From: Streptomyces sp. NBC_00289
Lineage (GTDB): Bacteria; Actinomycetota; Actinomycetes; Streptomycetales; Streptomycetaceae
Direction: 5' to 3'
NCBI RefSeq assembly: GCF_041435115.1
Contig: NZ_CP108046.1
Coordinates: forward strand, 4,712,001-4,776,000
Length of the DNA stretch: 64,000 bases
In this document: positions 44,417-46,573 of the stretch, in pieces
Layout of the letters: every line of letters begins with the position of its first letter
How positions within the stretch are numbered: position 1 is the stretch's first letter
The notes under the pieces: generated by a model
Seen by the model: only the letters and a program-made list of their open reading frames with translations
Told to the model about the DNA's origin: nothing
The model's database searches: none
Program-made: the position numbers and the translations under genes

Positions 44417-44854
44417 CTACGCGCCCGTGCGGCGGACCGCGTTCGCCGTGATCGCGTCCCGGAGGTGCTCCGCGAGACCCGGCCGCACGGAGTCGTAGAA
44501 CGCCTTGAAGCGCTCGTCGGAGACGTACATCCCGCCGAGGCCCTGGTGGAACTCGGGGGAGCACTCGTAGAACCACGTGCTGATGTGCAGCCGGTGCTCC
44601 TCGGCCAGGTCCATGGCCGCCTCGCCGGTCGGCGGCTCACCGGCGGCCATCAACGCGTCGTAGCGCGCGCTCCAGTCCTCGACCTCGGACCGCATGCGCT
44701 TCCAGTCCTCCTTGGTGTAATGGGCGGCGCGGCGCCGCGACTCGGCGTACACCTCCGTGCCGCCCCAGCGCTGTTCGGCCTCCTCGGCGTACTGATCGGG
44801 GTCCTTGTCCCCGAAGACCTCGAACCTTTCCTCGGGCGTGAGGTTGATGCCCAT
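44417..44854 (-). CDS. tipA: Internal in-frame product TipAS (drug-binding domain alone)
   Basis: Met110 (MGINLTPEERFEVFGD) is preceded by GGAGG at 8 bases. In S. lividans the same internal start produces abundant TipAS, which sequesters thiopeptides. Conservation of the start and its ribosome-binding site suggests that the short form is also made here (145 residues). Confidence 0.7.
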   Translation of the reverse strand: MGINLTPEERFEVFGDKDPDQYAEEAEQRWGGTEVYAESRRRAAHYTKEDWKRMRSEVEDWSARYDALMAAGEPPTGEAAMDLAEEHRLHISTWFYECSPEFHQGLGGMYVSDERFKAFYDSVRPGLAEHLRDAITANAVRRTGA

Positions 44855-45181
44855 CCTGCGTGCCTCCATGGCCTGCTCCACGGCCGCCGCCATCTTCCGC
44901 AGTCTCTCGATCCGGGCGGTCAGCAGTTCGTGCTGCCGGCGCAGGTGCGCGCGCGGGTCCGCGTCCGCGTCGTCGAGCAGCTCGGCGACCTCCTCGAGCG
45001 GGAAGCCGAGTTCCCGGTAGAACAGGATCCGCTGCAGCCGGTCGAGGTCGGCGTCGTTGTAGCGCCGGTGGCCCGCGTGGCTGCGCTCGCCCGGGGCGAG
45101 CAGGCCGATGTCGTCGTAGTGGTGCAGCGTGCGCACCGTGACTCCGGCGAAGCCGGCCACCTGTCCCACGGAGTAGCTCAC
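44417..45181 (-). CDS. tipA: TipA-type MerR-family regulator lacking the thiopeptide-reactive Cys214
   Basis: The 254-residue protein aligns without gaps to TipAL of S. lividans as I recall it. It has an N-terminal MerR winged helix (MSYSVGQVAGFAGVTVRTLHHYDDIGLLAP), a long dimer helix and a C-terminal TipAS drug-binding domain (from Met110). TipAL binds thiopeptides such as thiostrepton covalently and then activates its own promoter. In the loop around residues 205-225 (WFYECSPEFHQGLGGMYV) Cys207 is kept, but the position of the reactive Cys214 is Gly. GTG start with GGGAG upstream. The promoter architecture is preserved. Confidence 0.92.
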   Translation of the reverse strand: MSYSVGQVAGFAGVTVRTLHHYDDIGLLAPGERSHAGHRRYNDADLDRLQRILFYRELGFPLEEVAELLDDADADPRAHLRRQHELLTARIERLRKMAAAVEQAMEARRMGINLTPEERFEVFGDKDPDQYAEEAEQRWGGTEVYAESRRRAAHYTKEDWKRMRSEVEDWSARYDALMAAGEPPTGEAAMDLAEEHRLHISTWFYECSPEFHQGLGGMYVSDERFKAFYDSVRPGLAEHLRDAITANAVRRTGA

Positions 45182-45207
45182 TTCCGCTCCCTTCTCGGTA
45201 CGACTCC

Positions 45208-45238
45208 ACGCTGAGGCCTCACGCCACGTGAGGTGCAA
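45208..45238 (-). promoter_or_regulatory. tip promoter: MerR-type promoter with 19-bp spacer and dyad
   Basis: Read toward tipA: -35 TTGCAC, a 19-base spacer CTCACGTGGCGTGAGGCCT, then -10 CAGCGT. The stretched spacer and the CCTCAC/GTGAGG dyad within it are the hallmark of MerR-activated promoters. They agree with the S. lividans tipA promoter as remembered (same -35, same -10, near-identical spacer). Confidence 0.85.
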
Positions 45239-45289
45239 GCCGCCCACGCTCGAGATGTTGTGTCCGTTTGATCCGCTTATGGTGAGCGC

Positions 45290-46573
45290 GTGGCCCAGGA
45301 CAGCGCGCAGCCGGCACCCGCAGCCCCGGCGACTCCGGCACGCACTCTGCTGCTGCTGATCATCCCCGCGCTCCTCGTGGGAGTGGGAGCCAGTCTGGTG
45401 CTGCTCGCGGTCAGCGCGCTGGGCGAGCAGTTGCAGGACGTGCTCTGGCAGGACCTGCCCGACGCACTGGGGATCGGCCGGTACTCCGTCTTCTGGATGC
45501 TCGTCGTGCTCACGGCCACGGGCCTGGCGGTCGGGCTGGTGGTCTGGAAGGTGCCGGGACACGCCGGGCCCGACCCGGCCACCACCGGACTCGACGCTCC
45601 CGTGCTGCCGCCGGGCGTGCTGCCGGGGCTGGCGCTGGCGACCGTCCTGATGCTCGCGGGCGGGCCGAGTCTCGGCCCCGAGAACCCGACCATCGCGGTG
45701 AACGTCGCACTCGCCTTCTGGCTGGGCAATCGACTGATTCCGCGGATGCCGGGGCCCCTGTGGGTGATGCTGGCCGAGGCGGCGACGATCGGCTCGCTGT
45801 TCGGCACGCCGGTGGCGGCGGCTCTGGTGCTCTCCGAGGCGCTGGCCGGCCAACAGGTCAGAGGAGCGCTGTGGGACGCCGTCTTCGCCCCGCTGGCCGC
45901 GGCCGCGGCGGGCGCCATGACGACCAGCCTGGTGGCCGAGCCGTCCTTCGACCTGCACCTGCCCCCGATCGGCACGCCCGGCTGGAGCGACCTGCTGGCC
46001 GCGCTGGTGATCTCGTCCGTGGCGGCGGTGCTCGGCATGTGCGCCGTGTACGCCTTCCCGTACACCCACCGCCTCTTCTCCCTTCTCCGGCACCCGATGG
46101 TGGCGCTTCCGGTCGGCGGCGTCGTGCTGGGGCTGCTGGGGGCCCTGGGTGGCCATCTGACGCTCTTCAAGGGCCTGGACGAGGTCTCGGAGCTGGCGCG
46201 CGATCCCGACGGCTGGTCGGCCGGACAGTTCGTCACGATGTCGGTGGTGAAGCTGGCCGCGCTGCTCATCGCCGCGTCCTGCGGCTTCCGGGGCGGACGG
46301 ATCTTCCCGTCCGTCTTCGTGGGCGTGGCCCTCGGGCTGGGCGCCCACGCCCTGGTGCCCGCCGTGCATCCGGCGGTCGGTGTCTCCGCGGCGGTGCTGG
46401 GCACGCTCCTCGCCATCACCAGGCTGGGCTGGGTGAGCCTGTTCACGGCCGCCGTCCTGGTGGCCTCGCCGACGATCCTCGCCCTGCTGTGCATCGCCTC
46501 GCTGCCCGCCTGGCTGCTGGTCACCGGCCGTCCCCAGATGCAGTTGCACGCGGACGGGACAGCGGTCCGCTGA
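45290..46573 (+). CDS. ClC-family chloride channel/antiporter (YfeO-like)
   Basis: The 427-residue protein has about ten membrane helices. LAGGPSLGPENPTIAV carries the ClC gating-glutamate motif (GPE), and SCGFRGGRIFPSVFVGVALG the GxFxP anion-binding motif. It resembles the YfeO clade, in which the first Ser motif is not canonical. ClC H+/Cl- antiporters relieve the charge built up during glutamate-decarboxylase acid resistance. Here the next gene on the same strand is gadB, 200 bp downstream. It is divergent from tipA, and the 108-bp gap holds the tip promoter. Start GTG. Confidence 0.85.
   Translation: MAQDSAQPAPAAPATPARTLLLLIIPALLVGVGASLVLLAVSALGEQLQDVLWQDLPDALGIGRYSVFWMLVVLTATGLAVGLVVWKVPGHAGPDPATTGLDAPVLPPGVLPGLALATVLMLAGGPSLGPENPTIAVNVALAFWLGNRLIPRMPGPLWVMLAEAATIGSLFGTPVAAALVLSEALAGQQVRGALWDAVFAPLAAAAAGAMTTSLVAEPSFDLHLPPIGTPGWSDLLAALVISSVAAVLGMCAVYAFPYTHRLFSLLRHPMVALPVGGVVLGLLGALGGHLTLFKGLDEVSELARDPDGWSAGQFVTMSVVKLAALLIAASCGFRGGRIFPSVFVGVALGLGAHALVPAVHPAVGVSAAVLGTLLAITRLGWVSLFTAAVLVASPTILALLCIASLPAWLLVTGRPQMQLHADGTAVR

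What the first reader, a model, noticed from the sequence alone, without database searches (positions are those of the whole stretch)
44417..45238. TipA homologue with intact tip promoter but Gly in place of the thiostrepton-reactive Cys214
The protein aligns without gaps to S. lividans TipAL as I recall it. Met110, the TipAS start, and its GGAGG site are kept. The promoter keeps TTGCAC-19-CAGCGT with the dyad. Cys207 is present, but position 214, known as the covalent attachment site for thiopeptides, is Gly (loop YECSPEFHQGLGGMYV). The regulator may bind thiopeptides non-covalently, use Cys207, or sense a different ligand while keeping the same amplification circuit.
Basis: partly seen in the sequence, partly recalled or inferred. 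Interest (0 to 1): 0.82.

Follow-up and report, generated by a model that had tools for sequence, protein, structure and literature searches.

The report
TipA drug sensor lacking reactive cysteine
This is an ordinary, intact Streptomyces gene for a sensor of thiopeptide antibiotics; it has glycine where the textbook protein has a cysteine thought to bond permanently to the drug, and that cysteine turns out to be absent from about a third of the Streptomyces relatives sampled and from most outside relatives sampled, so the permanent bond looks like an optional add-on.

Summary
The gene at complement(44417..45181) is the positional orthologue of S. lividans tipA. It aligns without gaps to the solved TipAN and TipAS sequences, has an exact TTGCAC-19-CAGCGT promoter with a perfect dyad, and keeps the internal TipAS start with its GGAGG site. 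Cys207 is present and position 214 is Gly.

The oddity largely dissolves on comparison. Of 303 distinct Streptomyces tipA genes sampled, 110 lack Cys214 (83 Gly). Of 20 homologues from other Streptomycetaceae genera, 17 lack it (15 Gly); of 16 deeper homologues, 15 (10 Gly). On the tree the root is inferred non-Cys (P 0.90), with at least 52 changes at this site. Cys214 is best read as a recurrently gained and lost feature, not a family hallmark. Dyad and TipAS start are kept in both forms, and the protein is under purifying selection.

Best explanation: a working autoregulated thiopeptide sensor and sequestering protein that holds its ligand non-covalently in the conserved cleft. Takeover by Cys207 or a different ligand remain possible. 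Two published contact residues (Phe126, Val135) also differ here (Lys, Ala), but these too are common in the genus. That Cys214 is the reactive residue is recalled; no passage I read named the position.

The parts
44417..45181 (-). tipA (TipAL), GTG start, 254 aa: MerR-type DNA-binding domain plus TipAS drug-binding domain
   Evidence: Pfam MerR_1 E 1.1e-18, TipAS PF07739 E 1.4e-41; PDB 2vz4 and 2mbz ungapped
44417..44854 (-). TipAS, predicted separate product from internal ATG (Met110, 44854-44852)
   Evidence: sequence; ATG at codon 110 in 300 of 303 Streptomyces genes (192 of 193 with Cys214, 108 of 110 without)
44863..44867 (-). GGAGG ribosome-binding site of TipAS, 8 nt before the ATG
44540..44542 (-). 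codon 214, GGC (Gly), where S. lividans has Cys214
44561..44563 (-). codon 207, TGC (Cys207), conserved in 268 of 303 Streptomyces genes
44804..44806 (-). codon 126: Lys in place of thiopeptide-contact Phe126
44777..44779 (-). codon 135: Ala in place of thiopeptide-contact Val135
45208..45238 (-). tip promoter: -35 TTGCAC (45238-45233), 19-bp spacer, -10 CAGCGT (45213-45208)
   Evidence: 12/12 match
45217..45233 (-). operator dyad CCTCACG-TGG-CGTGAGG in the spacer, sharing its first base with the -35 hexamer
   Evidence: 14/14 match; the -35 plus dyad pattern has this one exact match in the whole genome
45187..45191 (-). GGGAG, likely ribosome-binding site of TipAL
   Evidence: sequence

Best explanation
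The gene is the orthologue of S. lividans tipA and works as the same minimal loop: a long form (TipAL) that activates its own promoter when drug-bound, and a short form (TipAS) made in excess that soaks the drug up. In this protein, and in a large fraction of the genus, position 214 carries no thiol. Thiopeptides (or close relatives) are therefore held in the cleft by non-covalent contacts, with Phe123, Tyr131 and Trp139 kept and Cys207 as a conserved core residue, rather than by a permanent thioether at 214. Cys214 is best seen as an often gained and lost addition that turns a reversible sensor into an irreversible trap. Shown here: orthology, intact circuit in sequence, absence of Cys214, its distribution and lability, purifying selection. 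Inferred: non-covalent binding, ligand class, and the sensor-versus-trap reading.
For: Ungapped match to 2vz4 and 2mbz. Positional orthology: 2.2 kb at 77% DNA identity with the locus whose TipAS is 100% identical to S. lividans (L032). Position 214 in 303 Streptomyces genes: C193 G83 S13 N5 R4 A3 D1 H1; in 20 from other genera: G15 C3 A1 S1; in 16 readable deeper homologues: G10, C1, five others. At least 52 C/non-C changes on a 323-tip tree built without columns 200-217 (shuffled labels: mean 100.6), and root P(non-Cys) 0.90. Site 214 ranks 28th most changeable of 250 sites, while Phe123 and Trp139 never change. Glycine is encoded by all four codons (GGC50 GGG21 GGT14 GGA13), as expected of an old state. 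The circuit is kept in non-Cys214 genes: dyad at 13/14 or better 110 of 110, promoter at 10/12 or better 103 of 110, ATG110 108 of 110. dN/dS of TipAS 0.25-0.41 against five near orthologues. Titration of S. lividans TipAL gave micromolar affinities, and loss of the Phe123 or Phe123/Phe126 side chains cost only 1.4- to 2.5-fold in drug binding (PMC7762955 section 7). A relative, AlbA, binds its drug non-covalently (PMC6078987 passages).
Against: No binding data exist here for a Gly214 protein. A review reports that tip-promoter induction apparently depends on a dehydroalanine-containing tail (PMC3917276 passages), which suggests that covalent chemistry matters at least in S. lividans. Lys126 and Ala135 also alter the published contact surface, and the double Phe123/Phe126 mutant, though it bound drug, lost most activation of DNA binding. 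Inside Streptomyces, loss of Cys207 is almost never combined with lack of Cys214 (1 of 303), which hints that some thiol on this segment matters. Perfect promoter and dyad matches are rarer without Cys214 (promoter 3 of 110 against 31 of 193; dyad 82 of 110 against 176 of 193, not corrected for relatedness).
Confidence: 0.66

Rival explanations
1. Cys207 takes over as the nucleophile: the drug still becomes covalently bound, seven residues earlier on the same segment.
For: Cys207 is kept in 268 of 303 Streptomyces and 19 of 20 other-genus genes. Only 1 of 303 Streptomyces genes lacks both cysteines, where 12.7 would be expected if the two were independent (35 x 110 / 303; counts). On the 323-gene tree a dependent-evolution model fits better (LRT 13.7, 4 df, p 0.008), and simulated independent evolution gives so few double losses in 3.1% of runs.
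Against: Where Cys207 is absent in Streptomyces it is Val, Ala or Ile, as at a buried core site. The non-Cys207 genes mostly carry a linked block Phe205-Val207-Cys214-Phe215 (32 of 36), so the association may be block inheritance rather than many events. Two deeper homologues lack both cysteines (L384, L385), and in the PDB relatives 3qao and 7cla neither aligned position is Cys (read by eye). The test was made after seeing the pattern, on one tree.
Confidence: 0.12
2. The sensor keeps the circuit but has shifted to a different ligand class, for example thiopeptides without a dehydroalanine tail or other hydrophobic compounds.
For: Lys126 and Ala135 replace two published contact residues, and Pro209 (6 of 302 other Streptomyces genes) and Phe211 (2 of 302) are rare. 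Distant family members sense other drugs.
Against: Lys126 (168 of 303) and Ala135 (190 of 303) are the commonest states in the sample and occur with and without Cys214. Phe123 and Trp139 are invariant in 303 of 303.
Confidence: 0.17
3. The gene is decaying and the Gly is a neutral loss.
For: Position 214 is among the more changeable sites (rank 28 of 250).
Against: dN/dS 0.25-0.41 in TipAS, intact promoter, dyad and both starts, intact reading frame.
Confidence: 0.03

Closest known systems
S. lividans TipA (TipAL/TipAS; PDB 2vz4, 1ny9, 2mbz, 2mc0)
   Same: ungapped alignment, domain order, promoter spacing and dyad and internal TipAS start (the S. lividans dyad probe is quoted in PMC7762955), genomic neighbourhood
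   Different: Gly for Cys at 214, Lys for Phe at 126, Ala for Val at 135; 71% protein identity to the locus with the identical TipAS (L032)
Other Gly214 TipA orthologues of Streptomyces: L251 (S. fumigatiscleroticus), L003, L010, L016
   Same: 83-86% identity, Cys207 kept, Gly214, Lys126, Ala135
   Different: three of these four have Ala216 where the window has Gly216; all four have Tyr209, the window Pro209
SkgA of Caulobacter crescentus (7cla) and the MerR-like regulator 3qao
   Same: MerR DNA-binding domain plus TipAS-like domain; SkgA also has Gly at the aligned position 214 (read by eye)
   Different: neither has Cys at aligned 207 or 214; 107 and 127 bits over the full length against 174-199 bits for each TipA half
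AlbA of Klebsiella oxytoca
   Same: TipAS-like drug-sequestering protein, with long and short forms assumed by its authors, non-covalent (passages of PMC6078987)
   Different: two tandem TipAS-like domains, albicidin ligand

Membership tests
TipA class (MerR HTH + TipAS domain) | N-terminal MerR-type HTH followed by PF07739 TipAS domain | tested here: met
   PF13411 E 1.1e-18, PF07739 E 1.4e-41, both over the curated cut-offs
TipA orthologue (S. lividans type) | positional orthology | tested here: met
   L032 and the window align over 2.2 kb at 77%; of 125 distinct genes whose locus holds some flank, 96 show a YbjQ-like or CLC-like neighbour (61 of 79 with Cys214, 35 of 46 without); flanks of 700-1500 bases may miss neighbours
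TipA orthologue (S. lividans type) | self-binding promoter with dyad in a 19-bp spacer | tested here: met
   12/12 and 14/14; activation itself not testable
TipA orthologue (S. lividans type) | internal translation start giving TipAS | tested here: met
   ATG110 with GGAGG 8 nt upstream; translation itself not tested
Covalent thiopeptide trap | Cys at position 214 | tested here: not met
   Gly214. That 214 is the covalent site is recalled, not read in any held paper
Covalent thiopeptide trap | adduct formation with thiostrepton | not testable with these tools
   needs mass spectrometry
Thiopeptide-binding TipAS | published contact residues Phe123, Phe126, Tyr131, Val135, Trp139 | tested here: inconclusive
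   three of five kept; Phe126 is Lys and Val135 is Ala; the paper speaks of eight contact residues in this region, the others were not checked
Any curated NCBIfam family | score over the curated cut-off | tested here: not met
   17 matches, all to the HTH part (ending at residue 107 or before) and all below cut-off

The most novel reading that the evidence does not exclude
TipA exists in nature as two interchangeable modes. One is a reversible sensor (Gly214, ancestral) and the other an irreversible suicide trap (Cys214), switched back and forth dozens of times, often a single base apart (GGC/TGC), while the amplification loop and the TipAS short form stay fixed. Within Streptomycetaceae at least one thiol, at 207 or 214, is almost always retained on that segment, so the nucleophile may even migrate between the two positions.
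Probability: 0.25. Interest if true: 0.62.

Novelty: new member of a known kind. Interest (0 to 1): 0.4.

Why it matters
S. lividans TipA is the basis of a standard inducible promoter of Streptomyces genetics (recalled) and a model of drug sequestration, and held papers describe covalent or denaturant-resistant capture as part of how it works (passages). If about a third of natural orthologues lack the thiol, that covalent bond is not needed for the circuit to be kept by selection. Close Gly214/Cys214 orthologue pairs (for example the window and L004, 85% identical) then give a ready natural experiment on reversible sensing against irreversible trapping. The individual gene is otherwise ordinary.

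Tried and rejected
Loss of a conserved residue in one lineage: rejected, since Cys214 is absent in 110 of 303 sampled Streptomyces genes.

Compensation by Ala216: Gly214 goes with Ala216 in 27 of 58 genes and Cys214 with Ala216 in 24 of 144, but on 12 phylogenetically independent pairs it is not significant (on average 1.9 same way, 0.1 opposite, 10 no difference).

Linkage of 214 with contact sites 126, 135 or 131: no significant association on the same 12 pairs. The rest of that output (a scan of further positions) was cut and is not used.

Paralogy (a Cys214 copy elsewhere in the genome): rejected, one PF07739 match only at E <= 0.001.

Thiostrepton ribosomal methylase in the same genome making the trap redundant: none found (PF04705).

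A wider regulon in this genome: one exact operator and two further places with 3 mismatches each, against one match for the reversed control pattern, so no evidence for other targets.

A fold model to place 207 and 214 in space: the machine was busy at all five attempts. Three original TipA papers looked up by DOI are not held, so the adduct position could not be checked in print. Two paper searches used the residue as a term: all 20 papers listed (of 91) have no 'Cys214', and the two listed papers (of 6 shown, 18 found) with 'C214' concern other proteins. Searches searched TipA without the residue number. I make no claim that variation at 214 is undescribed.

Dropped rows: L001 and L002 (the window itself), L191 (reads only 41 aa), and identical coding sequences counted once (370 loci to 322 plus the window). 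L388 was unreadable. In the genus-draw subset alone, 76 of 219 lack Cys214. The trees are quick or FastTree trees with many weak branches, so numbers of changes are approximate. The neighbour count (133 of 169) included the window's own locus and duplicates; one search replaces it.

Full report
WHAT IS THERE. The finding lies on the minus strand. An ORF of 254 codons with a GTG start runs from 45181 to 44417. Pfam finds MerR_1 and TipAS domains over their cut-offs. Against the sequences of all solved structures the best matches are S. lividans TipAN (2vz4, residues 2-108) and TipAS (2mbz, residues 110-252), each in one ungapped stretch. The loop reads YECSPEFHQGLGGMYV against YDCGYEMHTCLGEMYV in S. 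lividans: Cys207 is kept and Cys214 is Gly, codon GGC at 44542-44540. The promoter matches TTGCAC-19-CAGCGT at 12 of 12 and contains a perfect dyad CCTCACG-TGG-CGTGAGG; the TipAS start ATG110 has GGAGG eight bases upstream.

Of five thiopeptide-contact residues listed in PMC7762955 (section 7 read), Phe126 and Val135 are Lys126 and Ala135 in the window, while Phe123, Tyr131 and Trp139 are kept. Lys126 and Ala135 are the commonest states in the sample (168 and 190 of 303); the S. lividans states Phe126 and Val135 are found in 78 and 100 of 303.

IS IT THE ORTHOLOGUE? The window genome holds one TipAS-domain gene at E <= 0.001. A locus whose TipAS is 100% identical to S. lividans (L032) aligns with the window over 2.2 kb at 77%, flanks included. 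The window neighbours are a YbjQ_1 gene and a CLC-type channel gene. Of 125 distinct genes whose loci hold some flank, 96 show at least one of these neighbours (61 of 79 with Cys214, 35 of 46 without); flanks of 700-1500 bases can miss them. This is the positional orthologue, not a paralogue.

HOW ODD IS GLY214? I searched 392 Streptomyces genomes, 297 genomes of the family Streptomycetaceae and the named genome collection (best 80 kept), and fetched part of what was listed: 370 loci, which gave 322 distinct coding sequences plus the window. Position 214 in the 303 Streptomyces genes is Cys 193, Gly 83, Ser 13, Asn 5, Arg 4, Ala 3, Asp 1, His 1; so 110 of 303 lack Cys. In 20 genes from other genera of the family it is Gly 15, Cys 3, Ala 1, Ser 1. 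In 16 readable homologues from a search of 89 genomes of the class it is Gly 10, Cys 1, and Ala, Arg, Asp, Asn, Ser once each (one of these 16 is a second Streptomyces gene and one a second gene of its genome; a seventeenth, L388, was unreadable). SkgA of Caulobacter also aligns a Gly there (by eye). Gly is therefore the usual state among the outside homologues seen and common inside Streptomyces. All four Gly codons are used.

HOW LABILE IS IT? On a tree of 323 genes built without columns 200-217, Cys/non-Cys at 214 needs at least 52 changes (labels shuffled: mean 100.6), and a two-state model puts the midpoint root at non-Cys with P 0.90; most-probable states along that tree give 38 gains and 16 losses (37 and 17 with another rooting). 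On the earlier 220-row tree the minimum was 40; site 214 ranks 28th of 250 sites in number of changes, while Phe123 and Trp139 have none and Cys207 has 5. Only 12 independent contrasts lie on well-supported branches of that tree, so the large numbers are approximate. In the window's own lineage the model infers a Cys gained early and then a return to non-Cys in the ancestor of a 111-gene clade; this rests on a FastTree topology. Among the window's 14 nearest relatives on the tree, 10 have Gly, 3 Cys and 1 Ser.

IS THE CIRCUIT KEPT WITHOUT CYS214? Yes in the main. In the 110 Streptomyces genes without Cys214 the dyad is present at 13/14 or better in 110, the promoter at 10/12 or better in 103, and ATG110 in 108. 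In the 193 with Cys214 the counts are 192, 182 and 192. Perfect matches are fewer without Cys214: dyad 82 of 110 against 176 of 193, promoter 3 of 110 (the window is one) against 31 of 193; I have not corrected that for relatedness. dN/dS of the TipAS part against five near orthologues is 0.25-0.41. The -35 plus dyad pattern has one exact copy in the whole genome.

CYS207. Cys207 is present in 268 of 303 Streptomyces genes; the rest have Val 33, Ala 1, Ile 1. Both cysteines are present in 159, only Cys207 in 109, only Cys214 in 34, neither in 1 (L254). Independence would predict about 12.7 with neither. With relatedness taken into account the support is moderate: simulated independent evolution gives one or none in 3.1% of runs, and a dependent model beats an independent one by 13.7 in twice the log-likelihood (4 df, p 0.008). 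Against a strict rule: two deeper homologues have neither (L384, L385), the non-Cys207 genes carry a linked block Phe205-Val207-Cys214-Phe215 in 32 of 36, the test was chosen after seeing the table, and Val/Ala/Ile are what one expects at a buried position. I therefore treat Cys207 mainly as a core residue and keep takeover by Cys207 as a rival.

MECHANISM. [quoted passage not shown]). The adduct raises the mass of a cysteine peptide by 1664 Da (PMC3382597 passages). A review says that tip-promoter activity apparently depends more on a dehydroalanine-containing tail (PMC3917276 passages). None of the passages I read numbers the cysteine; Cys214 is recalled. Most likely, then, the window protein binds thiopeptides in the same cleft, reversibly, and drives the same loop. 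What it would lose is permanent capture. This is inference; no binding data exist here.

VERDICT. An ordinary, intact tipA orthologue carrying the widespread and probably ancestral non-Cys state.

Noticed in passing
392 Streptomyces genomes: Genomes with a thiostrepton-resistance methylase (PF04705 over cut-off, 9 of 392) nearly always lack a close tipA (best E <= 1e-90, list read by eye): 8 of 9 lack it, against 95 of 383 of the rest (Fisher p 1.3e-4). On a ThrE tree of 30 chosen genomes (these 9 plus 21) the methylase needs at least 6 changes, but some carriers sit in lineages without tipA, so relatedness may explain part of it.
   Followed up: partly
L099, L102, L103, L110, L114, L115 and others; L346 in another genus: An alternative core block Phe205-Val207-Cys214-Phe215 is found in 32 genes, with three one-residue variants (one of them, L346, in another genus); most others have Tyr205-Cys207-Leu215. 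The 36 non-Cys207 genes fall in 16 clusters of a tree built without these columns, as if the block were exchanged or evolved repeatedly, or the tree is too weak.
   Followed up: partly
window 45182-45289: tipA and a CLC-type channel gene (45290-46573, +) are transcribed away from each other with 108 bp between their start codons, and the tip dyad lies in that gap, so TipA might also affect the channel gene.
   Followed up: no
window codons 209 and 211 (44557-44555, 44551-44549): Pro209 (6 of 302 other Streptomyces genes) and Phe211 (2 of 302) beside Gly214 are rare; Glu67, Ala72, Val144, His154 and Ser165 are found in none of the other 302.
   Followed up: no
L191 (G119): A tipA gene that reads only 41 aa from its start as taken from the assembly; possible frameshift or assembly error.
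   Followed up: no
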